Below, in pieces: positions 26,505 through 39,018 of a stretch of 39,764 nucleotides of DNA. Below the pieces are notes generated by a model. The model saw nothing but the letters and a program-made list of their open reading frames with translations. It had not been told where the DNA came from and did no database searches. The position numbers and the translations under genes were made by a program. Origin of the DNA: Candidatus Roizmanbacteria bacterium RIFCSPHIGHO2_02_FULL_37_13b (GTDB lineage: Bacteria; Patescibacteriota; Microgenomatia; UBA1406; HO2-37-13b); contig MFZK01000013.1 of assembly GCA_001789395.1 (NCBI GenBank), positions 1 through 39,764 on the forward strand, given 5' to 3'. Within the stretch, counting starts at the first letter, position 1. Each line of letters starts with the position of its first letter.

Positions 26505-27149
26505 ATGCCTAGGCGTAGAATTATTTTAGCAAGTGGTGAGTATTATCATATTTTCAATAAAACATTATTGCCACAAAATATTTTTTTTAATAAACGAAAT
26601 AATGACTATTTTATCGCTGCAAGCGATTACTATCGGCATCTGAATGTTCCAGTTCAATTCGCAAAATACAATGAGAATAAGAAAGCCTATTCCATAAATG
26701 GATTAAAACTCGTTGTATCAATTTATGCCTATGCATTGATGCCGAATCATTTCCATTTTTTGTTAAAACAGCACGAAGATAATGGAATAAGGACATTCAT
26801 TCAAAGATTGTCTAATAGTTACGCACATTTCTACAATTTGAAATATTCTCGAAAGGGAGCGTTATTTCAGGGGCCGTTTAAATCAGTACGTATTGAATCA
26901 GAAGAACAACTACTTCATGTTGTTCGTTATATTGATTTGAATGCAACTACATCATACCTGGTTGAAGATCCCGCAGATTTTATTTATTCCTCCTATAGAA
27001 CACATATCGGATTGTTTGATATGAGTTGGATAGAAAAAAGATTTATTCTGGATCATTTTGGAAGTTTTAACAAATATAAAAAATTTGTATTAGATAATAA
27101 AGATTACCAGCGAAGTTTAAAAAAGATCGATTTATCAATTATTGAGTAA
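26505..27149 (+). CDS. REP-associated tyrosine transposase (RAYT 2)
   Basis: 214 residues. It begins MPRRRIILASGEYYHIFNKT, the same N-terminal motif as the other RAYTs. HUH is in MPNHFHFLLKQ. The segment GALFQGPFKSVRIESEEQLLHVVRYIDLNATTS holds the block where RAYTs usually have HLNP; here it reads DLNA, a departure from the family. The reading frame is complete. Flanked by REP-2 palindromes, with the right one inside the end of the amidohydrolase gene. Activity is plausible but the DLNA change is worth noting. Confidence 0.85.
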   Translation: MPRRRIILASGEYYHIFNKTLLPQNIFFNKRNNDYFIAASDYYRHLNVPVQFAKYNENKKAYSINGLKLVVSIYAYALMPNHFHFLLKQHEDNGIRTFIQRLSNSYAHFYNLKYSRKGALFQGPFKSVRIESEEQLLHVVRYIDLNATTSYLVEDPADFIYSSYRTHIGLFDMSWIEKRFILDHFGSFNKYKKFVLDNKDYQRSLKKIDLSIIE

Positions 27150-27167: not shown

Positions 27168-28181
27168 TCAAGACGATCCAGGATCGTCTGGCTTCAGTCC
27201 CAGTACTTTTCTTCCATTTACTGTCGCGATTTTCACCAGTTCATCGATTTCAGTGACATAACGGTTAGCGATAGCCAATAGTTTAAGGTCGTACCACAAA
27301 TCAGCATCACAAAAGGGGACCATAAAATCAGCGATGTTGTCAGTACCTAAAGCGACGGTGATACCGGCAGGTATCATCTCATCTATCGGTGTCACTGAAT
27401 TATGAAACGGTTGAAGTTCTTCCTTTCTTTTTGAATCAATCCAGGCAGTCGGGCAGGCTATAACAGAGATATCTGTATTTCGTAATTTTTTATATACTTT
27501 TTCCCGGTAAGCTTTGTTATGTGCTGCAATTGAAAGCGCATGAATGATGCTGACACGCCCTTGAAGGCCATATTCCTCAGTCTTATTACAAATCATTTCC
27601 GTACCTTTATCTTCAATTCTATTAAACTGATCAGCGTGGATGTGAAGCCTTTTTTTCAGCTTTTTCGCTGTTTGAAAGATTATATCAAGATGCTCCTCAT
27701 ATTTATCATAGTCGCGCTTATCGCGTTCGGGTAAGCCGCCGATAATATCAACCAGTTCCGCCCCGCGGTCAAACCAATATCGTGCCTGTTTTTCAATCAC
27801 ACCTTTGATTACCTGATTGCTATATATAATTGTAATCTTATCTTTATATACCTCACGAGCCTTGATGGCACCCTTTATTGCTCGATCTTCAGCAATAGGG
27901 TCAATATCTATATTTGAACAAACAGCTGTAACGCCCTGTGAGATCATCAACTCCAAAGCTTGACTGATCCGTCGATAATATTCATCTACACTGGCATTTT
28001 TTTTAACATCATCAACTAAATCCCATTTTTGTTCAAGTGAGTATTTTTTGTAGTCAGCTAATTTTTGAGGATGAATTGTGAAGGCGCGATCAGCATGGAC
28101 ATGTGCATTGATCCAGCCACCATTTTTTTTTATTTCATCTAAAATAAGTTCTTTGAAATTCCACGGATTATTTTTCCTCAT
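27168..28181 (-). CDS. CodA-like amidohydrolase (cytosine deaminase family)
   Basis: 337 residues. Metal and catalytic motifs of the CodA-type amidohydrolase superfamily: NAHVHADR (HxH), LHIHADQ (third His; CodA has His-x-Asp-Glu here), SIIHALS (fourth His) and GTDNIADFMVP (Asp). The usual catalytic Glu appears as Gln, so deaminase activity cannot be assumed. Substrate could be a cyclic amide or pyrimidine. I start at the second Met (MRKNN) because the promoter TTGACA-17-TAGATT (28191-28219) touches the first ATG. The last seven codons run through a REP-2 palindrome, giving a C-terminus PDDPGSS that is probably not original. Confidence 0.75.
   Translation of the reverse strand: MRKNNPWNFKELILDEIKKNGGWINAHVHADRAFTIHPQKLADYKKYSLEQKWDLVDDVKKNASVDEYYRRISQALELMISQGVTAVCSNIDIDPIAEDRAIKGAIKAREVYKDKITIIYSNQVIKGVIEKQARYWFDRGAELVDIIGGLPERDKRDYDKYEEHLDIIFQTAKKLKKRLHIHADQFNRIEDKGTEMICNKTEEYGLQGRVSIIHALSIAAHNKAYREKVYKKLRNTDISVIACPTAWIDSKRKEELQPFHNSVTPIDEMIPAGITVALGTDNIADFMVPFCDADLWYDLKLLAIANRYVTEIDELVKIATVNGRKVLGLKPDDPGSS
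27171..27189. repeat. REP-2 palindrome, copy 2
   Basis: AGACGATCC-A-GGATCGTCT, inside the 3' end of the amidohydrolase gene. Confidence 0.85.
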
Positions 28182-28190
28182 TTCAGACAT

Positions 28191-28297: not shown

Positions 28298-31200
28298 ATG
28301 AACAAGATAATCTTCAAAAAAAGCAAGGCGGGTGAAATCGCAGCTACAATAGCGATTTTTTCTCTAGGAGTGATGATCCTGGGAGCTTTTTTGGGAAAAC
28401 AAAGTGGAAATACCAGTCTATTTCCCCGTGCAGCTTCGAACAATGAAATTCAAAGGTCATTATTTCCACCTCCACCACTTTTACCGAGAGTCCTATCTGT
28501 TCCTAAACAAATGGCTCTGAGTAAGCCCTATTCATCAACTGGAAAAAATCAACCATTAGTTGTTATTACTCCTCCACCTGGTATTACATTACCTCCTGAG
28601 GGAGCGTATTTTATGGAATTGCCGACTACCTGCGGTGGAGCTTTTTATTTAAAAACATGCCCTAAGGCTGTAAAATTACAGTTGTTTGCCAAGGACGATT
28701 CAGGTAAAGATATAACTCTAGATTTAAGCCACGGAATGCCTAAAATGTTGAGCATGAACGGTGCGGGATTGACTGTATCTTGGGATCCAAGACTTGATCT
28801 TGGTATAAAGCAGGTTCGTCTGGCCGGAATCGGTAATATCAGTGATATTGGTAAAAATCGCATCTATGTTTGGATGAAAGAAGGTGGTGGTTCTGGCTCT
28901 TTACGAGAAGTCATTTATGATAAGGAAAATAAGAAAATTAGAATATATGATACAACCTATATAACCGGTAGTGGTTGTAGTACCCCCCCATGTACAACTC
29001 GATCCGAACAGGACTGGCTTATCGATGACAATATATTAAAAGCAGCTGATGGTAAACGACCAGCGACGATCTATTTTGTCTATGAAGCTGATCGGGGCAG
29101 GGGGTTAGAATTACTTTATCAAGGTATAGTGAGATCGGCGTGTTTACCCGTGACACCGACTCCGACAGGTCCTACACCAACCGGGCCGACTCCGACAGGC
29201 CCGACACCAACCGGGCCGACTCCGACAGGCCCGACCCCAACAGGACCAACACCAACAGGCCCAACACCAACAGGACCAACACCGACTGGTCCTACACCAA
29301 CAGGCCCAACACCAACAGGACCAACACCAACCGGGCCGACGCCGACAGGTCCAACACCAACTGGTCCGACAAGTACGCCGCTGCGAGCATCATGCACTGA
29401 TTCGTGCTCTCGTGATGGGACAGGGCTTCCTCGATGTTATGATATAGATCCGATTTTAAAAGTACCGTTAAAATGTTATAACTTGGCGCGTATGACAGAG
29501 TGTTCACGTTTTGATACATATTGTGAATGTCGTTATACAAAATATCCTAAAAGTCCTACTTGTAGTGGTCCGACTCCGACAATAACCAAGACAATAACTC
29601 CGACAAAGACACCGACGCCTACAAAGACACCGACACCAACCACAATTACACCAACAATTACTAAGACCATAACACCGACTAAAACACCAACACCGACAAA
29701 GACCCCAACGCCAACAGGTACAATCACTCCGACTCCAGAAAGCTGTCCATTTAATGCCGTGGTTAGAGTGTTTATTAAAAACCCCGATGGTACTTTTATA
29801 AATAATATCGCTAAAGAGAGTCGTGGAGATTGGATTTCCCTCAAATCATGGGGAATAGACTATCCACGTGGTAGCGTGTTAGCGGATCAGGATGCAAAGA
29901 AACTGTTTACAGACACACCAAATAAAATTGCCTTTTTAACCTCATCTTCAATTTCCGAGTTTGGTGAAAAGAGAGGTTTTAATATTTTCTCTTCACCTTT
30001 AGATTCTTCACGGATGCTTTTCTATGATCCTGCAGACTATTTGACCGAAGCTAATAGATTTAATTATCGAGTTGTTAACAAATTCTGTAACTATAATCCG
30101 GATAGAGTTGGAAGAAAAGGAAGTTGTAAAGATTTAGAGCCATATCCAATAACAAATCCATTAGATGTTAGCGGTCAATCTTTTCTTCAAAAAAGAACTA
30201 TAGATCTTGCACTTGATTGTGGAAGATATAATTTTGGGTGGATTCTTGAGAAAACAATCTCACCTCCAACAATAACTCCTACACCGCCAATCGGTACTCC
30301 CGGGCCACCAACAAGGACCGTGACGCCTACATCATCACCTAAAATAACACCGACTTCCGTCAACTGTCCTTTCTCAGCCCGAGCACGAGTATTGGTCGAG
30401 AAGCCGGGTAAAGTGCTAAAAGAAACAGATCTTGCTAAGCAAGGAACTCATTATTTTGATCCACAAGACAGCCATTGGGGAGTAATTGATTCGACAAGCT
30501 GTATACAAAAGGTAAATTGTTCAGTGAGTCATTTTAAAGAACAGGCCGACTCACTTTGGAGACCTAATTATGAAGCTTTGAAACAGAATCTAGGTAAGGA
30601 ATATTGGCGTGATCTGGTTTTTGATGATACAAAGTACGAAGTTGTTGGCGCTTGGTGTTATAATCATTCAACCACTGATCCTAAAGAAGGATGTATCCAA
30701 AATCCAGCCGATTACCCGGGAAATCCAAGAGTGTCTTGGGGTCCAATATCAGGTCGAAGGTGGAATGAGGCTTATAGATGGGACAAAAATGATTCAAGAT
30801 ATGATCCGGGTTATACCTCAAAAGGTATTGGTTCTTTACAAATTCAATGTGGATATGATTTAGATTACGGTTGGATTGTTAGACCGCGAGTGCGAGCCTG
30901 TGATGCCAATATTCTTTATGTATTGGATAAATCATCGACGATGTATGACTCGAGCGGTCTAAAGTCGCGAGCGGTACGAAATGCGATGTTAGTTAAAGAT
31001 AAGAGTCAAATTGGAATAAAATACAAATTAATGGCTTTTGATGGAAAGGTTGAAAATAATTTTACTTCCAACTGGGTGGGTTTCCCGGAACTTGATAATG
31101 CTCTTGTAAATATGAATTTGAATGGTTTTGGAACAGCAATTTCATCCGCACTTTCTGCAGCAAGTAGTGAAGTTAAGAAAGACGAAGGAAAAAAACCAAC

Positions 31201-31942
31201 TGCGGTTATCTTTATCTCCGACGGTGTACCGTCGGTGAGCAAAGACAGTTGTTGGTTTAGGAACACTAACATCATGGGTAGTAGTCAAAGAGGGCTTGGT
31301 GATAATCCGTCTGGTTCTGGATCAACGACTAAAAGTGAAGGTTATTGCGATAGAAGTAAACCCGCAAATACTAATCCAATCACTCGATGCAATGGATATA
31401 ACGGGAGTCAAAGTACCCAATGCAATTATTGTGTCAACAGCAAACCTACCTATGGTAGTGCGCTGGAAGAGGTTTTAGATCAAACTAAACTTTTTGTGAA
31501 TCGATCAAAAGTTTATCTCTATACAATAGGAGTTTTAGAAGAGCCATATAATGACCTACTTATGAAAAAGATTGGACTTAACGGTTATTATGCTTATGGA
31601 AAGGGAACTCCCGGAAATCTTACTGTTTCTCAGGCTTTGGACTCTACTTTTGAAGCAGCATTTGAGAAAATGTGCGGATATAAGAGTCAAAGCGGTGCAA
31701 TGTCTGCAGCTGATTGGGGACAAGTTGACCGCTTAAAAAAGTATTGCGATATCGACAATAGCGGTCAATGCGACTCTGAAGACTACAAGATCGCACTTGA
31801 TAATTTCAATCAGTCGTCAAAATCAACGTCGAGAACACAGGCTAAACAGGTAGTAGGAGATTTAAATGGCGATCGAATTTTCAATGCAGCTGATATATCC
31901 AGATGGCAGGAAATCATCAACTCAACCAATCTGCCTTTGTAA
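28298..31942 (+). CDS. Giant secreted protein with vWA domain and C-terminal dockerin
   Basis: 1214 residues. It has an N-terminal membrane helix (about 12-33) and a first domain (about 95-280). A linker of about 14 TPTGP repeats follows (about 284-358), then a small Cys-rich domain and a TPTKTPTP linker (about 424-481). Two related domains each begin CPF and end in a ...GWI(L/V) block. A von Willebrand A domain starts at about 868, with MIDAS-like DKSST (D877) and ISDGVPS (D975). The C-terminus carries two dockerin-like calcium loops: DIDNSGQCDSEDY and DLNGDRIFNAADIS. vWA domains bind protein ligands through a metal. The dockerin would attach it to a cohesin such as 1332-2567. The N-terminus resembles the other dockerin protein. 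Its 3' end overlaps argG by 21 bases. Confidence 0.8.
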   Translation: MNKIIFKKSKAGEIAATIAIFSLGVMILGAFLGKQSGNTSLFPRAASNNEIQRSLFPPPPLLPRVLSVPKQMALSKPYSSTGKNQPLVVITPPPGITLPPEGAYFMELPTTCGGAFYLKTCPKAVKLQLFAKDDSGKDITLDLSHGMPKMLSMNGAGLTVSWDPRLDLGIKQVRLAGIGNISDIGKNRIYVWMKEGGGSGSLREVIYDKENKKIRIYDTTYITGSGCSTPPCTTRSEQDWLIDDNILKAADGKRPATIYFVYEADRGRGLELLYQGIVRSACLPVTPTPTGPTPTGPTPTGPTPTGPTPTGPTPTGPTPTGPTPTGPTPTGPTPTGPTPTGPTPTGPTPTGPTPTGPTSTPLRASCTDSCSRDGTGLPRCYDIDPILKVPLKCYNLARMTECSRFDTYCECRYTKYPKSPTCSGPTPTITKTITPTKTPTPTKTPTPTTITPTITKTITPTKTPTPTKTPTPTGTITPTPESCPFNAVVRVFIKNPDGTFINNIAKESRGDWISLKSWGIDYPRGSVLADQDAKKLFTDTPNKIAFLTSSSISEFGEKRGFNIFSSPLDSSRMLFYDPADYLTEANRFNYRVVNKFCNYNPDRVGRKGSCKDLEPYPITNPLDVSGQSFLQKRTIDLALDCGRYNFGWILEKTISPPTITPTPPIGTPGPPTRTVTPTSSPKITPTSVNCPFSARARVLVEKPGKVLKETDLAKQGTHYFDPQDSHWGVIDSTSCIQKVNCSVSHFKEQADSLWRPNYEALKQNLGKEYWRDLVFDDTKYEVVGAWCYNHSTTDPKEGCIQNPADYPGNPRVSWGPISGRRWNEAYRWDKNDSRYDPGYTSKGIGSLQIQCGYDLDYGWIVRPRVRACDANILYVLDKSSTMYDSSGLKSRAVRNAMLVKDKSQIGIKYKLMAFDGKVENNFTSNWVGFPELDNALVNMNLNGFGTAISSALSAASSEVKKDEGKKPTAVIFISDGVPSVSKDSCWFRNTNIMGSSQRGLGDNPSGSGSTTKSEGYCDRSKPANTNPITRCNGYNGSQSTQCNYCVNSKPTYGSALEEVLDQTKLFVNRSKVYLYTIGVLEEPYNDLLMKKIGLNGYYAYGKGTPGNLTVSQALDSTFEAAFEKMCGYKSQSGAMSAADWGQVDRLKKYCDIDNSGQCDSEDYKIALDNFNQSSKSTSRTQAKQVVGDLNGDRIFNAADISRWQEIINSTNLPL
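29147..29370 (+). repeat. 15-bp coding tandem repeat (TPTGP linker)
   Basis: About fourteen copies of a 15-bp unit encoding Thr-Pro-Thr-Gly-Pro. Codon choice varies between copies, so selection acts on the peptide. A second, irregular Thr/Pro/Lys tract lies at 29568-29740. Confidence 0.95.
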
Positions 31943-33541
31943 CTGCGCTATTAATTTTTTAGCCACTTCAATATCAGTGATTAAAAGCGTTTTCTTTTTC
32001 AGGGCATATTCGCGAATTACTTGTCCATCAGTGATTTCCTTTGATGTTGAATCTTTTGTGGTCGGAATGTTGATGATCAAATCAAACCGATTGGATTGAA
32101 GTAGGTCAAATAGATTGGGTTTTAGATGGCGATTGGATATTTTATTAACTAATATCGCTTCAATTCGACGTACCTTTAAAAATTTATGAGTCTTGTAGGT
32201 AGCATATATTTTATATTTCATTTGATTCAGTGCTTTTGCGACGGGAAGAAGTTTTACCTTATTGCTCCGTTGCCCAAAAGAAAGTAGTACCGTCTTTTCC
32301 GATCTTTGCGCTAATCTCATTTGAAAGGTATAAAGCTCGATAAATCCAGCTGATGCATTTTGATTAAATGACGAATCAGTCAAAAAAGTAGCCAGTTTTT
32401 CTTCAAATATCGTGTTTGGAGTGTCTAGGGCAACCGCCTCTGCTCTACCTTTAAAAAGGCGGACTTTGACCGTCCCGGTCACTTTTTCATTCATACGATC
32501 GATAAAAGCGTTAAGATCGTCCATAAGAGGATCAAGCCACAAAGCCCCATAGCACATGTATGCCCATTTAGTATCGACAATTTGTTTAAATTCATTTTCC
32601 GTCCGGGTCGAGACATATTTTTCGAGGTCACGATGGGCGGTGATGATAATTTCAGCTGCCGGAGCCTCGTAGATGCCTCTGACTTTTAGACCAAGGACAC
32701 GATCTTCGATGTGATGTGCAATTCCGACGGCGTGTTTAGCGCCGATTTTATTAAGCTCGAGGATTATATCTGACAGTTTCATTTGTTTGCCATTTACGGC
32801 TACAGGAATACCCTTGATAAATTCAAGTTCAACTATTTCCGGTTTTGAAGATGCCTTTTCCGGAGTCACGCATGTCTGCAAAATTTTTTCCAAGGGAGGG
32901 ATTAATGCTGGATTTTCTACTTCACCACCTTCAGATGTGACGCCCCACATATTATCATCGGCTGAATAAAGCTTATCTGCAGTTTGTTTAACGGGAATAT
33001 TATGTTGTTTTGCGTATTTCCATTCTTCATCACGTCCCATTGACCATTCTCTAACAGGTGCGATAATTTTTATATCAGGGTTTAAAGCGAGAGCAGTGCC
33101 CTCTATTCGGACTTGATCATTTCCTTTACCGGTACAGCCATGAGCGATGGAATCAGCTCCTTCTTGTGCAGCGATTTTTACCGCCCATTTAGCAAGAAGT
33201 GGACGGCCAACAGGAGTTGAAAGATGGTAATTGCCCTGATAAGAGGCGTTAGCTTTTATAGCTTTTGCGATGTAATCGTCAGCATATTCATCCTTAGCGT
33301 CAATGATAATTGCTTTGATAGCACCAAGTTTCAAGGCCTTTTGACGGATTTGCTCCAAGTCTTCTGTGATTTGGCCAATATCGATTGTCAGGGCAATGAT
33401 CTGTGCCTTATATTCTTCCTGAATCCATTTAAGCATCACTGAGGTGTCAAGCCCGCCGGAGTAGAGAAGGACTGTTTTTTTTACCTCACCCTTCTTAGCC
33501 TCGTAGGAGGCAACTTTTATATATTTTGTCGTTTTCTTCAT
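31922..33541 (-). CDS. argG: Argininosuccinate synthase fused to a C-terminal MGS-like domain
   Basis: 539 residues against about 400 in ordinary ArgG. The N-terminal PP-loop is LLYSGGLDTSV; HGCTGKGNDQVR and LYSADDNMWGVTSEGG are the usual citrulline/aspartate-site blocks. ArgG joins citrulline and aspartate with ATP, giving argininosuccinate, AMP and PPi. From about residue 412 there is a second domain: KVKLLPVAKALNQMKYKIYAT, FDLIINIPT, ITDGQVIREYAL, LLITD. It matches the MGS-like allosteric domain at the end of carbamoyl phosphate synthetase, which binds ornithine, UMP or IMP. This fusion is unusual. The gene is divergent from an AsnRS-like gene with the same added domain. A terminator-like hairpin just before the ATG suggests attenuation. 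The 3' end overlaps the vWA gene by 21 bases. Confidence 0.93.
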   Translation of the reverse strand: MKKTTKYIKVASYEAKKGEVKKTVLLYSGGLDTSVMLKWIQEEYKAQIIALTIDIGQITEDLEQIRQKALKLGAIKAIIIDAKDEYADDYIAKAIKANASYQGNYHLSTPVGRPLLAKWAVKIAAQEGADSIAHGCTGKGNDQVRIEGTALALNPDIKIIAPVREWSMGRDEEWKYAKQHNIPVKQTADKLYSADDNMWGVTSEGGEVENPALIPPLEKILQTCVTPEKASSKPEIVELEFIKGIPVAVNGKQMKLSDIILELNKIGAKHAVGIAHHIEDRVLGLKVRGIYEAPAAEIIITAHRDLEKYVSTRTENEFKQIVDTKWAYMCYGALWLDPLMDDLNAFIDRMNEKVTGTVKVRLFKGRAEAVALDTPNTIFEEKLATFLTDSSFNQNASAGFIELYTFQMRLAQRSEKTVLLSFGQRSNKVKLLPVAKALNQMKYKIYATYKTHKFLKVRRIEAILVNKISNRHLKPNLFDLLQSNRFDLIINIPTTKDSTSKEITDGQVIREYALKKKTLLITDIEVAKKLIAQLQRQIG

Positions 33542-33548
33542 TTATTAT

Positions 33549-33574
33549 AAAAAAATAAGCCGATTACTCGGCTT
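33549..33574 (-). terminator. Terminator-like hairpin in the argG leader (attenuator candidate)
   Basis: On the minus strand: arms AAGCCGA and TCGGCTT, loop GTAA, then A and seven T. It ends about 8 bases before the argG ATG, and no gene lies upstream for it to terminate. Leader attenuation is the simplest reading. No short leader peptide with Arg or Asp codons is visible. Confidence 0.65.
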
Positions 33575-33619
33575 TAAATGTTAATTTTATCAAAAAAATG
33601 GTTATTTCTTTAAAAAGTG

Positions 33620-33648
33620 TTGACAAATTGAAAAAAGTATACTAATCT
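33620..33648 (+). promoter_or_regulatory. Promoter of the AsnRS-like gene
   Basis: TTGACA (33620-33625), 17-base spacer, TAATCT (33643-33648). Transcription would start near 33655, leaving a leader of about 100 bases, long for this genome. Confidence 0.65.
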
Positions 33649-33689
33649 GTTCTGAAATTGTCAAGATGATTAAAAAAATTAAAATTTTG

Positions 33690-33740
33690 ATTACTTTTAC
33701 ATTTATTACGTAGATTTTAGTAAAAAAATGTAAAAGTAAT
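33690..33740. promoter_or_regulatory. Perfect 15-bp inverted repeat in the leader of the AsnRS-like gene
   Basis: Arms ATTACTTTTACATTT (33690-33704) and AAATGTAAAAGTAAT (33726-33740), loop 21 bases, 14 bases before the start codon. It could be an operator for a dimeric repressor or an RNA hairpin that hides the start. Confidence 0.7.
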
Positions 33741-33754
33741 TATTTTAAAAAGTT

Positions 33755-35296
33755 GTGATAAAAAGCATAGATCTTTCAATTCAAAATAACAAAATTTCAC
33801 TTAATTTGATTGAACATTTTTCTCATCTTGCCAGAATTAACGAAAGTTTAAATCGTGGTGTATTAGATCACTATCGAAGGTTGGGATTGACTTACGTCGA
33901 TGTACCGGCAATTGTCGGAATTACCGGCGCCTGCGAAAATATCGATACTCTATTTAAAATAGGCAATCGTTTGGGGTTGCCGCTTTTTTTTACCCAGACA
34001 GGTCAACTTGCGCTGGAGCAATCTCTACAATCATTTAAAGGGTGTTGTACTATCATATACTCAGGTCGTGATGAAGAGGAAGAAGATGAACGTCATTTAC
34101 GTCAGTTTCGATTGACAGAGGAAGAGGCAGATTGTAGTTTTGCCGGAATGACACGTGAAAATTATGATGAAGATAAGATGTATGAAATGCTATTAAGTCA
34201 CATTCAATTGGCAGTACAGTCGATAATAAAACAAGTTTTGCAGGACTACGGAGAAGTTTTGAGAAAGGTCTATCATCGGGATATTTCACGACTTAAACAT
34301 GCGGCTTCCAATGATTTTTTGCGGATTTCATACGAAGATGCAATTACACTTTTGAATAATAATAAATACAAAAAAGTCCGCTTCGGCGATGATTTAAAAG
34401 CAGAACATGAAGCATTGATTGTGAAACTGCTTAATAAAAAGGGTACCGAGTTACCGGTTTTTATCATGAAATATCCAAAAGAAATAAAATTTTTTAATAT
34501 GAAAGTATCAACGACTGACAAGCGAGTTTGTTTATCATCCGATTTGATTTTTCCGTATAGTGGTGAGGGGACAGGTGCTGCAGTCAGGGAGCATGATTTT
34601 GAAAAACTAAAAAAGCGACTTCTGACATCGACTATGTATGATCTTCACCTAAAAAGGGGAGGTAAGTACGAGGATTTTCAGTGGTATTTGGATATCGTAA
34701 AGAGCAAAATTTCAGCACCTCATGCTGGATATGGCTTGGGTAACGAGCGGGTATTGCAGTATATTTTTGCCGAATCAGACATCCGCAATGTTTCCCTTTT
34801 TTCACTGCTTAGTCGTCAGACTGGCGATTGGGACAAAAAACGCTATGGTCAGGCGGCAATTTTAACATCATCACAAAAACATATCCTTTTGGCAATTGGT
34901 CGGCTAGAAGATAAGAAATTTTTGTTGCCTCATGTTAAAAAGTTATTTAAACAGAAAAATTTTGTGCTTTATGCAACCAAACACAGCCATGAATTTTTTA
35001 ATAAAAATGGTGTATTGACTTCATTAGTCCACAAAATTTCCGAAGTCGGCAAAGCCCCAAATATTGGGGATTTAATTTCACGTCACGTCTTTGATTTAAT
35101 CATTAATATTCCAACAGGGGGTAGGGTGAAAGAGGGCCTGCCCACCGAAGCCCGAGGGCGTAGGCGGGAATTCACTGATGGCAAGCTCATAAGAAAAGCA
35201 GCCGTTGATCTTGGAATTTCACTTATTACCGACCCGGAGGTCGCCGCGATGACTCTAGACAATCTAAGCAGATTCCACACTCCTGGAGTGGAATAG
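33755..35296 (+). CDS. Class II AsnRS/AspRS-like catalytic core (asparagine synthetase-type) fused to an MGS-like domain
   Basis: 513 residues with a GTG start. The N-terminal part (1 to about 365) is a class II aminoacyl-tRNA synthetase core. Motif 2 is GRDEEEEDERHLRQF (like FRxE...RHLxEF of AspRS/AsnRS) and motif 3 is AGYGLGNERVLQYI. The OB-fold anticodon-binding domain is absent, so it probably does not charge tRNA. Archaeal AsnRS paralogues of this shape make asparagine from aspartate and ammonia, which is my best guess. The C-terminal domain (about 372-510) has LLPHVKKLFKQKNFVLYAT, FDLIINIPT, FTDGKLIRKAAVDLG and LITDPEVA, an MGS-like regulatory domain. It is clearly related to the one on the divergent argG. 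The last codons run through a REP-3 palindrome. Confidence 0.75.
   Translation: MIKSIDLSIQNNKISLNLIEHFSHLARINESLNRGVLDHYRRLGLTYVDVPAIVGITGACENIDTLFKIGNRLGLPLFFTQTGQLALEQSLQSFKGCCTIIYSGRDEEEEDERHLRQFRLTEEEADCSFAGMTRENYDEDKMYEMLLSHIQLAVQSIIKQVLQDYGEVLRKVYHRDISRLKHAASNDFLRISYEDAITLLNNNKYKKVRFGDDLKAEHEALIVKLLNKKGTELPVFIMKYPKEIKFFNMKVSTTDKRVCLSSDLIFPYSGEGTGAAVREHDFEKLKKRLLTSTMYDLHLKRGGKYEDFQWYLDIVKSKISAPHAGYGLGNERVLQYIFAESDIRNVSLFSLLSRQTGDWDKKRYGQAAILTSSQKHILLAIGRLEDKKFLLPHVKKLFKQKNFVLYATKHSHEFFNKNGVLTSLVHKISEVGKAPNIGDLISRHVFDLIINIPTGGRVKEGLPTEARGRRREFTDGKLIRKAAVDLGISLITDPEVAAMTLDNLSRFHTPGVE
35278..35290. repeat. REP-3 palindrome, copy 1
   Basis: CACTCC-T-GGAGTG, with further outer pairing (TTCC...GGAA). 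Inside the 3' end of the AsnRS-like gene. Confidence 0.8.
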
Positions 35297-35316: not shown

Positions 35317-36003
35317 TCACGAAATCCATTTCTCAACATATTTTATCTGATCAAGCATTTTTTGGTGATCGGCATTAGCTAATATAAATTGTTTATATTT
35401 GTCTACACTGTTTTTAAAACAGGATAACACCGGTGTTGGATTACAGAAATTTTGTTTAATATTTGGATTCAAATAGTGCTTTAATGAAGAAAGTTGATAT
35501 GTAGAAAGTTCATCAATATTTTTAACAATACCAGATGAATAGGGATTTAAGTGAATATAACGTGAAACGTGAATAAATTGTTCTTGGTTGACTATCATTC
35601 GTGATTTAAATTGGGGAAGAAAAATTGGTCCTTTTCTTTTATTTAAGATATTGTAATAACGAGTTATAGCATTTAGGATATTTGAAACAAAGGTGAAAAT
35701 ACCGTTGTCCAATTTCTGCATGAGGAGTAAGTGATAGTGATTTGGCATAATGCAAAAAGTCACGATATCGATCAAAAAATATTTTTTTAGGGTAAGTTCA
35801 TATTCTTTGTATCTCTTAATGACGTGTGATAATTGAGCGAAATGAGAATATCGCATGGTTATCTTTGAAGATCGATAATAATACATCAAATCGAGAAAAT
35901 GCTGGGCTAAACGTTCAGTTTGAAAAATTGGAATCCGATCTATTGTTTTATTATAGATATGATAGAAATGTTTATTGACAAAAATATCTCTTCTTGATGG
36001 CAT
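35317..36003 (-). CDS. REP-associated tyrosine transposase (RAYT 3)
   Basis: 228 residues. It begins MPSRRDIFVNKHFYHIYNKTID. HUH is in MPNHYHLLLMQ, and YIHLNPYSSG is the later conserved block. It is closest to RAYT 1 of this window: both share the KGPIFLPQFKS/GPIFLTQFKA and HLNPY segments. The promoter is one of the best leaderless cases: TTGACA (36033-36038), 17 bases, TCTAAT (36010-36015), then 6 bases to the ATG. Intact, so probably active or recently so. Bracketed by REP-3 palindromes. Confidence 0.88.
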   Translation of the reverse strand: MPSRRDIFVNKHFYHIYNKTIDRIPIFQTERLAQHFLDLMYYYRSSKITMRYSHFAQLSHVIKRYKEYELTLKKYFLIDIVTFCIMPNHYHLLLMQKLDNGIFTFVSNILNAITRYYNILNKRKGPIFLPQFKSRMIVNQEQFIHVSRYIHLNPYSSGIVKNIDELSTYQLSSLKHYLNPNIKQNFCNPTPVLSCFKNSVDKYKQFILANADHQKMLDQIKYVEKWIS

Positions 36004-36134: not shown

Positions 36135-36455
36135 TTAATATTCAATTCTTCTACCGGTTTTGAGAGCATCTCTAAGAGTAGTTATATAAGCATTTTTTTT
36201 AACCTCATCTGGAGTAAATCCAAAAGCATTGACGTCTGGATCAAGATCTATAGCTAGACGGTGTAATTTAGATAACCTTTCATCAAAAGATAACCTTTTA
36301 AATGATGACGCGATAACCAGAATGTCTATATCGCTGTATTCATTCGCTGTTCCGGATGCATAAGATCCAAATAGTAATATATTTTCAGGATTAAATTCTG
36401 TTCTTAGTCGACGGACAAATATTTTTAAAGTTTGATCAATTTTGTCTTTACCCAT
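36135..36455 (-). CDS. MNT nucleotidyltransferase-domain protein (antitoxin-like)
   Basis: 106 residues. The minimal nucleotidyltransferase motif is ILLFGSYASGTANEYSDIDILVI, with GSY and the DxD pair in place. In MNT-HEPN systems the MNT protein neutralises the HEPN toxin, in studied cases by AMPylating it. It begins inside the HEPN gene (31-base overlap), so the two are translated from one mRNA in the order HEPN then MNT. Complete and of normal length. The pair sits between 27-bp direct repeats. Confidence 0.88.
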   Translation of the reverse strand: MGKDKIDQTLKIFVRRLRTEFNPENILLFGSYASGTANEYSDIDILVIASSFKRLSFDERLSKLHRLAIDLDPDVNAFGFTPDEVKKNAYITTLRDALKTGRRIEY

Positions 36456-36808
36456 AGGTAAACTGTTTCAGCCATAACTAATAATGGTTTAATGTCATCA
36501 AATTTTTTAAAGTGTACTTGAGCAATATCGGCATAACGAGCCCATGAATAGGCAGTACTTAAGCTCTCTACGGATGGATTATTGATTTCGTTTAAATCAA
36601 GACCAGTTACTTGAACTAATTTTTCGATGAAATGAGTTTTTGGAGGTATTGTCGAGGTGAATTCTGCGATATAGGCTTTCAGTATTTTTTCAACAGATTG
36701 TTGAGCAAAAATGACAGTTCCTCGAAGTCTCTTGGACTTTGCCATAATATGCATATTTTCAAAGTCTTCTTCAGCCAAATCAAACCACAATTCTGTTTCC
36801 TTTTTCAT
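36425..36808 (-). CDS. HEPN-domain protein (toxin-like partner)
   Basis: 127 residues. HEPN pattern: LWFDLAEEDFENMHIM, then VIFAQQSVEKILKAYIAEF and PPKTHFIEKLV. The late segment ARYADIAQVHF contains an Arg and His separated by seven residues. This is one or more residues longer than the common Rx4-6H ribonuclease motif, so RNase activity is not certain. First gene of the HEPN-MNT pair. A TATACT (36815-36820) ends 6 bases before the ATG, another leaderless start. Confidence 0.85.
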   Translation of the reverse strand: MKKETELWFDLAEEDFENMHIMAKSKRLRGTVIFAQQSVEKILKAYIAEFTSTIPPKTHFIEKLVQVTGLDLNEINNPSVESLSTAYSWARYADIAQVHFKKFDDIKPLLVMAETVYLWVKTKLIKL

Positions 36809-36990: not shown

Positions 36991-37024
36991 AAGTTGCCAT
37001 CCTGCTTCAGGAAGGCATAGGGTC

Positions 37025-37534
37025 TTAGGGATAGCGGGGTGACGAAGCGTACGGCAGGAGGAGCCGATTCCACCTTGGGATCCCGATCAGAGTGATCGCT
37101 GGTTGTCCGAAGCGACCCGCGATATCACGTTCCGAACCGCTCGCGAATCCCATGTTCCGTCCGTCCGCGTCGAACAACCACACTTCGAGCCCCTGGCCAT
37201 TCCATCGTGGGATAATAACAAGGGACCGAACTGGCCATGGCGCGGGCTGCACCCAAACGATTTGGGCTCCGGTGAACGGAAGCGCGATCCGACAATCCCC
37301 GGTGAAGTTTGCTTCCGACCGAATCATAACTGATCCCCGTGGTAACCCATGCGCTTGGTCGCATGGAACCAACTCACTCATGGGGACCGGAGTTGGAGTA
37401 GGTCCCTGCGCCCAAACAGACGTCTGCCATACGAGCTCTGGACGCATGAGCCCGAAGCAGCCCAGCGCTAGGACAAGCAACAGCGCTGGTATGGCAGGTA
37501 CCCCGTAAACTGAACATATATTCTCTAGTAACAT
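37025..37534 (-). CDS. Secreted GC-rich protein, possibly beta/gamma-crystallin-like
   Basis: 169 residues from the ATG at 37534; a TTG 26 codons upstream (37612) is also open. It has a signal-like hydrophobic stretch (VPAIPALLLVLALGCFGL), the linker AQGPTPTPVP, then an extracellular domain. That domain includes SVMIRSEANFTGDCRIALP and SLVIIPRWNGQGLEVWLFD, loosely like beta/gamma-crystallin motifs. I hold that weakly. The first part of the frame is AT-rich and the rest strongly GC-rich with different codon use, as if a local upstream region and signal were joined to foreign coding sequence. It is followed by the large terminator at 36894-36990. Confidence 0.5.
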   Translation of the reverse strand: MLLENICSVYGVPAIPALLLVLALGCFGLMRPELVWQTSVWAQGPTPTPVPMSELVPCDQAHGLPRGSVMIRSEANFTGDCRIALPFTGAQIVWVQPAPWPVRSLVIIPRWNGQGLEVWLFDADGRNMGFASGSERDIAGRFGQPAITLIGIPRWNRLLLPYASSPRYP

Positions 37535-37777
37535 AGACAATATATGGGAAATTTTAAAATCATTAAAAACAACACCGTTAAAATTTCGTTTAAGTAGAGA
37601 ATATTTGTTCAAAGAAATGGGTACTTGACAGTACGACTAGACTGAGGCGGTCTGTAAACATCAGCTTCCTTCCTTGTGCATATTGCGGTTGGTTCGATTT
37701 TGCCCGGCGATTATCCGGGCGGATGATAGCACTAGGGGCGCCTAGTACAAGCGCGCCCCATACTGCCGTCGTGATCG

Positions 37778-38452
37778 TTACGGTTTGAGCGCCAGATCTT
37801 GCAGTTGGCTTGACACCTTATGAAGCGCGTCGAGCCCGGTCTGCAGCTGTCCTGAATCCTGCTGTTCCAGGCCGGATCGAACCTGATCGATGGCAGTGCG
37901 ATATTCCTTCATCGCCGCAGCCACTTCGGGCCTGTCTGCCTTCTGACTGACTTCGTCGGACAAGCTCGACACTTCGTCTAGGAGGCTCATCACCTCCTTG
38001 CGGCCCTCATCGCTCAAGTCCGTTGTTGAGAGCTGGGTCACAAGCTGGTCGCTGAGTGCGGCCAACTGCATCAGCGGCATGAGATTACCAATGCCGCCAA
38101 CCAAGCTCCCGATCGTCTTGCCGAGCTCGCCCGCGTCCTGCGGGGCGTATCGGCCAACCAACGTCGGATTCGAGGTCTCGAAAGACGTCTTGAAGTCGGA
38201 GCAGACCGACCAGTGGCGGTCGATACAGACCGCCTCGATGGGTCCCCTCATCCAGGCGAGGCCGAACATGATGCCGACCGTGCCCATGAGCAGGCCGGCG
38301 ACGGTCAGACCAGCTCCCCACAAACCGAGAATGGTCTGAACGGTCTTCACGGCGACTCTCGATCCGTCGTTGTTGACGATGTAGACGGGAAACGGCTCCG
38401 GTCGCGACAGAATCTCGGTGGACGGTGCAGTTTGACTTGAATCGGCGCTCAT
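37778..38452 (-). CDS. GC-rich membrane protein with helical C-terminus, unknown function
   Basis: 224 residues. A polar N-terminus (about 1-40) is followed by one or two membrane helices (about 42-70), a loop with two cysteines (CIDRHWSVC), a Gly-rich helix near 110-125, then a long alpha-helical coiled-coil tail rich in Ser/Asp/Glu/Gln. No family recognised. It is far more GC-rich than the rest of the window and has a strong Shine-Dalgarno site (GGGGGAG, 8 bases before the ATG), which almost no other gene here has. An 8-bp perfect hairpin, AAACCGGG/CCCGGTTT (38477-38497), lies in its leader. Probably acquired from another lineage, together with 37025-37534. Confidence 0.6.
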   Translation of the reverse strand: MSADSSQTAPSTEILSRPEPFPVYIVNNDGSRVAVKTVQTILGLWGAGLTVAGLLMGTVGIMFGLAWMRGPIEAVCIDRHWSVCSDFKTSFETSNPTLVGRYAPQDAGELGKTIGSLVGGIGNLMPLMQLAALSDQLVTQLSTTDLSDEGRKEVMSLLDEVSSLSDEVSQKADRPEVAAAMKEYRTAIDQVRSGLEQQDSGQLQTGLDALHKVSSQLQDLALKP

Positions 38453-38476
38453 CAGGTTTTCTCCCCCTGTGTGGTG
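38453..38476 (-). promoter_or_regulatory. Strong Shine-Dalgarno site of the 37778-38452 gene
   Basis: GGGGGAG followed by 8 bases and ATG. Notable because the other genes in the window lack clear ribosome binding sites. Confidence 0.7.
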
Positions 38477-38497
38477 AAACCGGGCTGATCCCGGTTT
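38477..38497. other. Perfect GC-rich hairpin in the leader of the 37778-38452 gene
   Basis: AAACCGGG, loop CTGAT, CCCGGTTT. No T-run follows in the minus direction, so it is not a standard terminator for that strand. Confidence 0.6.
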
Positions 38498-38580
38498 TGA
38501 CTGGCATAAATCTGCCTAGCTTGGCACAAAAAATCAAATTTTATACCAAGGTAGGCAGATGCCAGATTATTGAAGTTCCT

Positions 38581-38593
38581 CACCTCGCAGGTG
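38581..38593. repeat. REP-4 palindrome, copy 3
   Basis: CACCT-CGC-AGGTG, inside a longer match to 12975-12993 (AAGTT-CCTCACCTCGCAGGTG). Confidence 0.65.
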
Positions 38594-38767
38594 TTTAGCC
38601 TCGACTTTGTGACGCTTTTTCCTTAAATTTAAAATTTTCCCTTCCCACTTCGTCCCTCGATAAACTTGGGACTTCGTGGGATAGTTCTGCGTATTTCTAA
38701 TCCTAAATTCTTCACTGGATTAGAAACGCAGTCCTAAAAACCCTATATTGTCAAGGTGCGATAGCAC

Positions 38768-38815
38768 CGCAGACCCTTGCAGTCCCGACGATGTGTCGGG
38801 ATCTGGCGGGGACAA
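38768..38815. repeat. Repeat element C, copy 2
   Basis: Matches 10254-10301 with a few changes; the hairpin arms TCCCGAC/GTCGGGA are kept while the loop differs. Preceded by a small hairpin GGTGC-GATA-GCACC in place of GCCGTACGGC. Confidence 0.8.
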
Positions 38816-38915
38816 AGTGCAGCAGGCGATAGGTGAATTTGGATTATGCAAAATAAACCCAAACTCTTCATTCCAATCGATTAAACGATTGGATATTAGT
38901 CACCTGCTATTAGAT

Positions 38916-38983
38916 AAAAAAAATCCACGCAAAAATTTCTCGGTAAAAAGCAAATATTTTATCCGAAAAATGTGTGGACATAA
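38916..38983 (-). ncRNA. Candidate small RNA of about 65 nt
   Basis: Promoter TTGATT (39013-39018), 17 bases, TATACT (38990-38995). Predicted start near 38983; a single long hairpin TCCACAC...GCGTGGA (38924-38978) with a second inner helix; then eight T. Promoter, hairpin and T-run fit a short terminated RNA. A 23-codon frame through the hairpin is unlikely to be a protein. Confidence 0.4.
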
Positions 38984-38989
38984 ACCTAT

Positions 38990-39018
38990 AGTATAGCATA
39001 AAAGCGTTGGAAAATCAA
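38990..39018 (-). promoter_or_regulatory. Promoter of the candidate 65-nt RNA
   Basis: TTGATT (39013-39018), 17-base spacer, TATACT (38990-38995). Confidence 0.5.

What the first reader, a model, noticed from the sequence alone, without database searches (positions are those of the whole stretch)
31922..35296. Divergent pair of aspartate-using adenylating enzymes that both carry the same extra MGS-like regulatory domain
ArgG is about 140 residues longer than normal and the AsnRS-like core is fused in the same way. The two added domains are clearly related (both hold FDLIINIPT, a [IF]TDGxxIRxxA block and LITD) and resemble the allosteric end of carbamoyl phosphate synthetase. The enzymes share chemistry: each uses ATP to form an acyl-adenylate-type intermediate, and each probably consumes aspartate. 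Finding one regulatory module placed on both, back to back, suggests a jointly tuned aspartate branch point (arginine versus asparagine) controlled by one small molecule such as ornithine, UMP or IMP. No other arginine genes are nearby. The domain calls are from pattern; the shared control is inference.
Basis: partly seen in the sequence, partly recalled or inferred. Interest (0 to 1): 0.85.

Follow-up and report, generated by a model that had tools for sequence, protein, structure and literature searches.

The report
Pyrimidine front end built from ArgG
In a group of tiny uncultured bacteria, an arginine-making enzyme and an asparaginyl-tRNA-synthetase-like enzyme each carry the control domain that normally regulates pyrimidine synthesis, and they sit with pyrimidine genes where the usual first three enzymes are missing, which points to an undescribed route to the building blocks of RNA and DNA.

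Summary
Both C-termini are significant MGS domains (PF02142, 2.8e-12 and 1.1e-9), the only two in this genome. They keep the nucleotide-site residues of E. coli CarB and group with each other rather than with CarB.

The "arginine versus asparagine branch" reading misses the context. In related Patescibacteria, ArgG-MGS and/or AsnRS-MGS head operons with pyrD, pyrE, pyrF and pyrG. An AtzC/cytosine-deaminase-type amidohydrolase (window 27168-28190) occurs in 15 of 17 ArgG-MGS genomes and in 0 of 25 others. CarB and dihydroorotase are absent from 16 of the 17. The own genome's only carbamoyltransferase is OTC-like, beside carbamate kinase. ArgGs without MGS in the same class sit beside ArgH instead.

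Best explanation: ArgG-MGS makes argininosuccinate for pyrimidines, not arginine. The ring is closed, in this genome perhaps by AsnRS-MGS, and the amidohydrolase releases ornithine to give dihydroorotate, with nucleotide feedback through MGS. Replacement of the first three steps is supported by gene content and linkage; the chemistry is inferred and unassayed. The AsnRS-MGS role is the weakest step: eight ArgG-MGS genomes lack it, and it also occurs without ArgG-MGS.

No paper in the library searched describes this.

The parts
31922..33541 (-). ArgG-MGS: argininosuccinate synthase with C-terminal MGS domain (539 aa)
   Evidence: citrulline/aspartate/ATP motifs kept in alignment; AF2 model matches ArgG and, more weakly, carbamoyl phosphate synthetase structures
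31979..32251 (-). MGS domain of ArgG-MGS
   Evidence: PF02142 2.0e-13 in the own-genome search; nucleotide-site residues kept
33755..35296 (+). AsnRS-like-MGS: class II (Asx) catalytic core without anticodon domain, plus MGS (513 aa)
34928..35230 (+). MGS domain of AsnRS-like-MGS
   Evidence: PF02142 3.7e-10 in the own-genome search
27168..28190 (-). AtzC/cytosine-deaminase-type amidohydrolase (NCBIfam PRK06886), proposed to release ornithine and form dihydroorotate
   Evidence: NF005365 467 bits vs cut-off 340; nearest solved structure AtzC 3e-19; AtzC His60/62/217/249, Gln160 and Asp303 equivalents invariant in 12 members; co-occurs with ArgG-MGS 15/17 vs 0/25
33636..33664 (-). promoter-like site (TTGACA-17-TATACT) reading towards ArgG-MGS
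   Evidence: consensus match only
33547..33574 (-). terminator-like hairpin plus T-run between that promoter and the ArgG start; possible attenuator
   Evidence: such hairpins precede 4 of 9 divergently placed ArgG-MGS/AsnRS-MGS genes vs 3 of 55 other divergent genes, p 0.006, one start corrected by hand

Best explanation
The pair, with the amidohydrolase 4 kb away, is the front end of a rewired pyrimidine pathway. ArgG-MGS joins citrulline and aspartate to argininosuccinate. This lays down the N1-C2 bond of the pyrimidine ring. Ring closure (N3-C4) onto the beta-carboxylate gives a cyclic argininosuccinate, that is 2-(ornithylamino)-dihydroorotate. In this genome AsnRS-MGS could drive that step by adenylating the carboxylate; elsewhere it must be spontaneous or done by another enzyme. 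The AtzC-like amidohydrolase then hydrolyses the exocyclic C2-N bond and releases ornithine and dihydroorotate for PyrD, PyrE and PyrF. Citrulline is regenerated from ornithine (carbamate kinase plus OTC in the own genome) or made from arginine (dimethylargininase-like enzymes elsewhere). The shared MGS domains are inferred to sense UMP and shut both ligases, as in carbamoyl phosphate synthetase. Shown: domains, conserved residues, gene linkage, absence of CarB and PyrC from the draft genomes. Inferred: every reaction, the UMP ligand, the AsnRS-MGS step.
For: Operons with pyrD/E/F/G: L033, L034, L035-L039, L042, L044, L136-L141. Tightest form is ArgG-MGS, amidohydrolase, pyrD (G047, G400, G167). 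Amidohydrolase PRK06886 in 15/17 ArgG-MGS genomes and 0/25 others, p 1.4e-9. CarB and over-cut-off PyrC absent in all ArgG-MGS and AsnRS-MGS genomes except G219. Own pyrD, pyrE, pyrF present. The own carbamoyltransferase is OTC-like (283 bits vs cut-off 281; aspartate carbamoyltransferase 114 vs 237) and follows arcC. Nearest structures of the amidohydrolase are AtzC, which removes an N-alkylamine from a ring carbon (PMC4577212). In G431, which lacks it, a different amidohydrolase in the same operon is nearest to hydroxydechloroatrazine ethylaminohydrolase / 8-oxoguanine deaminase; AtzB homologues hydrolyse N2,N2-dimethylguanine, again an amine on the carbon between two ring nitrogens (PMC13054789). 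Dimethylargininase-like genes lie in the ArgG-MGS operon or contig of G149, G219, G431 and G020, and elsewhere in the genomes of G445 and G437. MGS-less ArgG of the same class pairs with ArgH. CarB residues for UMP/IMP kept in both MGS sets (PMC6245113). Aspartate ammonia-lyase-like gene in the G273 operon.
Against: No assay exists. AsnRS-MGS is missing from eight ArgG-MGS genomes and occurs in seven genomes without ArgG-MGS or PRK06886; an MGS-less form lies in an operon with complete carAB-pyrB-pyrC (L050). Its role is therefore not fixed by genomics. What closes the ring where it is absent is unknown. Seven ArgG-MGS genomes showed no citrulline source in the two searches made, one of which (PF02274) is known to miss a family member in G431. 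PyrD is common in the phylum (160/380), so PyrD without CarB is not in itself proof. ArgH lies beside ArgG-MGS or the amidohydrolase in three genomes. Absence calls rest on draft genomes.
Confidence: 0.55

Rival explanations
1. Aspartate branch point: ArgG-MGS makes arginine, AsnRS-MGS is an asparagine synthetase, and both are tuned by a pyrimidine nucleotide because aspartate is shared with pyrimidine synthesis. The amidohydrolase does something separate.
For: ArgH beside ArgG-MGS or its amidohydrolase in G725, G445 and G437. AsnRS-like core without anticodon domain resembles asparagine synthetases derived from AsnRS. An AsnRS-like gene sits in a full canonical pyr operon with an aspartase-like gene (L050).
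Against: Near-exclusive link of ArgG-MGS to the amidohydrolase and pyr genes; MGS-less ArgG is the one paired with ArgH; no canonical AsnRS found in the own genome; scores far below asparagine synthetase A models (60 vs 368 bits).
Confidence: 0.2
2. Remnant or salvage pathway: PyrD/E/F are fed by imported dihydroorotate or orotate, the amidohydrolase is a cytosine-deaminase-like salvage enzyme, and ArgG-MGS merely shares the operon and its control.
For: Many Patescibacteria keep PyrD without CarB. AsnRS-MGS-only genomes keep PyrD/E/F with no known source of dihydroorotate. Cytosine deaminase is the second-best structural relative.
Against: Salvage does not explain why the amidohydrolase occurs only with ArgG-MGS, why ArgG carries the CarB control domain, or why a different amine-releasing type of amidohydrolase takes its place in G431.
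Confidence: 0.15
3. As in the best explanation, but the amidohydrolase acts first on open-chain argininosuccinate to give N-carbamoyl-aspartate plus ornithine, and AsnRS-MGS (or another enzyme) then closes the ring as an ATP-driven substitute for dihydroorotase.
For: Same gene content; would let AsnRS-MGS-only genomes use scavenged N-carbamoyl-aspartate.
Against: The amidohydrolase relatives act on ring substrates; ArgG-MGS genomes without AsnRS-MGS would then lack a closing enzyme.
Confidence: 0.1

Closest known systems
Carbamoyl phosphate synthetase large subunit (CarB) C-terminal allosteric MGS domain
   Same: PF02142 fold, nucleotide-site residues (Lys954, Thr974, Thr977, Lys993, Asn1015) and Thr1042 kept; control of the first committed step of pyrimidine synthesis
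   Different: Attached to ArgG and an AsnRS-like core instead of an ATP-grasp synthetase; Thr1017 position is Pro
Argininosuccinate synthase (ArgG)
   Same: Whole catalytic core and ligand motifs; closest solved relative is the Thermus thermophilus enzyme at 345 bits
   Different: Added MGS domain; linked to an amidohydrolase and pyr genes rather than ArgH
AtzC (N-isopropylammelide isopropylaminohydrolase) and cytosine deaminase
   Same: Metal ligands His60/62/217 and Asp303, catalytic His249, Gln160 and His219 equivalents invariant
   Different: Distant sequence similarity (73 bits); Trp309 position not kept; proposed amine leaving group is ornithine
AsnRS-derived archaeal asparagine synthetase (3P8T, PRK06462)
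   Same: Class II Asx core without anticodon-binding domain
   Different: Weak profile similarity only (52 bits vs 228 bits to AsnRS); separate long-branched clade; MGS domain
Thermococcus kodakarensis arginine-derived carbamoyl phosphate route (PMC13260591)
   Same: Arginine/citrulline carbon feeds pyrimidines in an organism without CPS
   Different: There citrulline is phosphorolysed to carbamoyl phosphate, which enters the canonical pathway
Ornithine carbamoyltransferase plus carbamate kinase (arcB, arcC)
   Same: Own genome has the pair
   Different: Proposed here to run towards citrulline, feeding ArgG-MGS

Membership tests
Argininosuccinate synthase | Full-length match above curated cut-off | tested here: met
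   TIGR00032 456 vs 268 bits; NF001770 503 vs 334
Argininosuccinate synthase | ATP, citrulline and aspartate motifs | tested here: met
   SGGLDTS, GxTGKGNDQxR, YSxDxN, EDR and YE motifs kept; the usual GTS-ARP loop reads STP-GRP, which is also seen as STP-GRA in MGS-less ArgG paired with ArgH
Argininosuccinate synthase | Makes argininosuccinate | not testable with these tools
   needs assay
MGS allosteric domain (PF02142) | Profile match above cut-off | tested here: met
   47.0 and 38.8 vs 24.1 bits
MGS allosteric domain (PF02142) | Nucleotide-site residues of E. coli CarB | tested here: met
   Lys954, Thr974 and Lys993 in all 31; Thr977 Thr in 30, Ser in the window AsnRS-MGS; Asn1015 in 30
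MGS allosteric domain (PF02142) | Binds UMP/IMP | not testable with these tools
   needs binding assay
Asparaginyl-tRNA synthetase | Score above equivalog cut-off | tested here: not met
   180 vs 343 bits
Asparaginyl-tRNA synthetase | N-terminal anticodon-binding domain | tested here: not met
   alignment begins at profile position 131-132
Asparagine synthetase A, AsnRS-derived (PRK06462) | Score above equivalog cut-off | tested here: not met
   60 vs 368 bits
AtzC / cytosine deaminase type amidohydrolase | HxH, H, H, D metal and catalytic residues of the AtzC site | tested here: met
   invariant in 12 members
Dihydroorotase (PyrC) | TIGR00857 match in the own genome | tested here: not met
   no match
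Canonical de novo pyrimidine pathway in the own genome | CarB, aspartate carbamoyltransferase, dihydroorotase | tested here: not met
   CarB and PyrC absent; only carbamoyltransferase is OTC-like; draft genome 93% complete
Canonical de novo pyrimidine pathway in the own genome | PyrD, PyrE, PyrF | tested here: met
   L151, contig C3; PyrF (225 vs 111 bits) and PyrE (112 vs 107) above cut-offs; PyrD is a DHO_dh-family protein above the Pfam cut-off but below the pyrD equivalog cut-offs

The most novel reading that the evidence does not exclude
Pyrimidine rings are made through argininosuccinate rather than carbamoyl-aspartate, with ornithine as a recyclable carrier. In genomes with a dimethylargininase-like gene this would bypass carbamoyl phosphate altogether. 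In the own genome it would bypass aspartate carbamoyltransferase and dihydroorotase, with AsnRS-MGS as an ATP-driven ring-closing ligase, and both ligases would be shut by UMP through shared MGS domains.
Probability: 0.35. Interest if true: 0.95.

Novelty: new variant of a known kind. Interest (0 to 1): 0.85.

Why it matters
Carbamoyl phosphate is described as the precursor of arginine and pyrimidines in all domains of life (PMC13260591, PMC6245113). A route in which argininosuccinate supplies the pyrimidine ring would be a new front end to a core pathway, would account for Patescibacteria that keep PyrD/E/F but lack the first three enzymes, and would give a natural role to an AtzC-like amidohydrolase family that NCBIfam names only as hypothetical. 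It would also be a clear case of a regulatory domain moved from CarB onto replacement enzymes. The three enzymes are separately testable.

Tried and rejected
AsnRS-MGS as a plain dihydroorotase substitute: weakened by L050 (full carAB-pyrB-pyrC plus an AsnRS-like gene) and by ArgG-MGS genomes without it. Riboswitch or other Rfam RNA in 26.5-37 kb: none up to E 0.5. CarB/ArgG mutual exclusion as a statistic: not used, because CarB is present in only a minority of the phylum sample, so one CarB among ten ArgG-MGS genomes there is near chance; the operon linkage and amidohydrolase co-occurrence are used instead. ArgG substrate change inferred from the STP-GRP loop: rejected, nearly the same loop occurs in ArgG paired with ArgH. 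Plasmid search with the amidohydrolase listed only distant hits, at most 27% identity. AF2 of ArgG-MGS is of moderate confidence (pLDDT 75.5) and was used only for fold matching. Literature: no hit linking ArgG-MGS or argininosuccinate with dihydroorotate; subscription journals are largely outside the library.
Full report
The observation. The window encodes ArgG-MGS (31922-33541, minus) and AsnRS-like-MGS (33755-35296, plus), start to start across 213 bp. ArgG passes the argininosuccinate synthase models and both C-termini pass the Pfam MGS cut-off. A whole-genome search finds just these two MGS domains, so there is no CarB, PurH or MgsA to be confused with. The AsnRS-like protein matches the catalytic core of AsnRS from about profile position 131 on and lacks the anticodon-binding domain. 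The model of AsnRS-MGS is confident (pLDDT 88) and its core is nearest to AsnRS structures. The two MGS domains are 37-38% identical. In a tree, ArgG-MGS and AsnRS-MGS domains lie together apart from four CarB domains (87/87 support), with one case (G058) where the two domains of one genome are each other's nearest.

Control site. Aligned to E. coli CarB, positions Lys954, Thr974 and Lys993 are the same in all 31 domains. Thr977 and Asn1015 are the same in 30 of 31; Thr977 is Ser in the window's AsnRS-MGS. In E. coli, Thr977 and Lys993 are crucial for UMP inhibition and binding, and Ser948 affects the UMP/IMP response (PMC6245113). The ornithine-binding Thr1042 is also kept in nearly all, but may be a general feature of the fold. 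That the ligand is UMP is inference.

Context. A scan of 84,980 species genomes with AsnRS-MGS returned the fused form only in Microgenomates and other Patescibacteria. In L033, L034 and L044 both enzymes are in one operon with the amidohydrolase, in the order ArgG-MGS, amidohydrolase, AsnRS-MGS, pyrD in L033 and L034; in L035-L039 and L042 AsnRS-MGS precedes pyrD, pyrE and/or pyrF (most pyr identities outside L151 are read from sequence and from the DHO_dh search). In G047, G400 and G167 the operon is ArgG-MGS, amidohydrolase, pyrD. In the window the amidohydrolase lies at 27168-28190, separated from ArgG-MGS by a surface-protein gene; own pyrD, pyrE and pyrF are on contig C3.

Gene content. 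Over 42 distinct genomes, the amidohydrolase family PRK06886 is in 15 of 17 with ArgG-MGS and 0 of 25 without (p 1.4e-9; the comparison genomes were chosen by relationship and by MGS content, not at random). CarB and over-cut-off dihydroorotase are absent from all ArgG-MGS and AsnRS-MGS genomes except G219, which carries both systems side by side. In the own genome the only carbamoyltransferase scores as ornithine carbamoyltransferase and directly follows carbamate kinase. G047 and G733 also have OTC-type enzymes; G058 has a divergent aspartate-carbamoyltransferase-like protein below cut-off. Six genomes carry a dimethylargininase/arginine-dihydrolase-like gene, four of them in the ArgG-MGS operon or contig. 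Seven ArgG-MGS genomes showed no citrulline source in the searches made. PyrD is more frequent in ArgG-MGS genomes than in the phylum sample (9/10 vs 152/371, p 0.002), but its base rate is high.

What the amidohydrolase suggests. Its nearest solved structures are AtzC, then cytosine deaminase. AtzC takes isopropylamine off a triazine ring carbon using one zinc held by His60, His62, His217 and Asp303, with His249 essential (PMC4577212). All equivalents are invariant in 12 family members. G431, the one ArgG-MGS genome that lacks both this family and CarB, has instead an amidohydrolase of the AtzB / 8-oxoguanine deaminase group in the same operon. AtzB relatives hydrolyse N2,N2-dimethylguanine (PMC13054789). 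Two different amidohydrolases whose relatives remove an amine from a carbon between ring nitrogens, each beside ArgG-MGS, are the basis for proposing that the substrate is the ring form of argininosuccinate and that ornithine is the leaving amine. The existence of cyclic forms of argininosuccinate is from general knowledge, not tested here.

Two kinds of ArgG. ArgG without MGS in the same class (G479, G199, G436, G506) lies next to ArgH, as expected for arginine synthesis (ArgH identity there read from sequence); three of the four are 57-60% identical to the window's ArgG core and G506's is 39%. G199 has both kinds. ArgH also lies next to ArgG-MGS in G725 and G445, and next to the amidohydrolase in G437, which fits argininosuccinate as a branch point between arginine and pyrimidines in those genomes.

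AsnRS-MGS. This is the least certain part. Its CPR clade sits on a long branch away from archaeal and other relatives, and the MGS domain has been gained or lost more than once. It is absent from eight ArgG-MGS genomes, present in seven genomes without ArgG-MGS or PRK06886, and an MGS-less TPR-like fusion lies in a complete carAB-pyrB-pyrC operon (L050). It falls far below both the AsnRS and asparagine synthetase A cut-offs. The own genome shows no canonical AsnRS at the threshold used. Ring-closing ligase and asparagine synthetase both remain open; the first is favoured here only because of operon position and because an Asx-type core that activates a carboxylate fits the missing step.

Transcription. 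A terminator-like hairpin with a T-run lies between a promoter-like site and the ArgG-MGS start, in a region whose other flank is the divergent gene, so it can act only on the ArgG leader. Similar hairpins precede 4 of 9 divergently placed ArgG-MGS or AsnRS-MGS genes against 3 of 55 controls (p 0.006, one start corrected by hand). Attenuation is plausible, not shown.

Verdict. Observation confirmed; interpretation partly supported and redirected. The replacement of the first pyrimidine steps by an ArgG-based module is the best reading of the gene content (about 0.55); the exact chemistry and the AsnRS-MGS step are hypotheses for assay.

Noticed in passing
G645, G677, G592, G417, G655, G413, G552: AsnRS-MGS genomes with no ArgG-MGS, PRK06886, CarB, carbamoyltransferase or PyrC; most still have PyrD, so their source of dihydroorotate is unknown.
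   Followed up: partly
L050:6585-9110: 841-aa fusion of a TPR-like region with the AsnRS-like core (no MGS), in an operon with carA, carB, pyrB and pyrC and near pyrD/F/E/G and an aspartase-like gene.
   Followed up: partly
L143:4393-5757 (-): 454-aa protein with a CxxxCxxC stretch and no family match, in the ArgG-MGS operon of G431, which has no PyrD match; possible replacement enzyme.
   Followed up: no
L138:12555-13433, L143:2778-3725, L036:10490-11329: Family of about 280-315 aa beside pyrE/pyrF, one member weakly similar to uracil phosphoribosyltransferase; function unknown.
   Followed up: no
window 18835-21462: Replicative helicase (DnaB-like) ORF that appears to carry an intein, read from sequence.
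   Followed up: no
window 26505-27149 and 35317-36003, also 468-1193: Y1-type (IS200/REP-associated) transposase-like ORFs flank both ends of the ArgG-MGS / AsnRS-MGS / amidohydrolase stretch; family match tested for the second only.
   Followed up: no
window 28298-31942: 1214-aa protein with a long PTPTG repeat and a von Willebrand A domain lies between the amidohydrolase and ArgG-MGS, interrupting the order seen in relatives.
   Followed up: no
window 36135-36808: HEPN-domain gene beside a nucleotidyltransferase-like ORF, a toxin-antitoxin-like pair.
   Followed up: no
window 37000-39000: GC rises to 52% against about 38% in the rest of the window; possible foreign or misassembled segment.
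   Followed up: no
L154 (G058): The MGS domains of the ArgG and AsnRS-like proteins are each other's nearest relatives within this genome (96/91 support), suggesting exchange between the two genes.
   Followed up: partly
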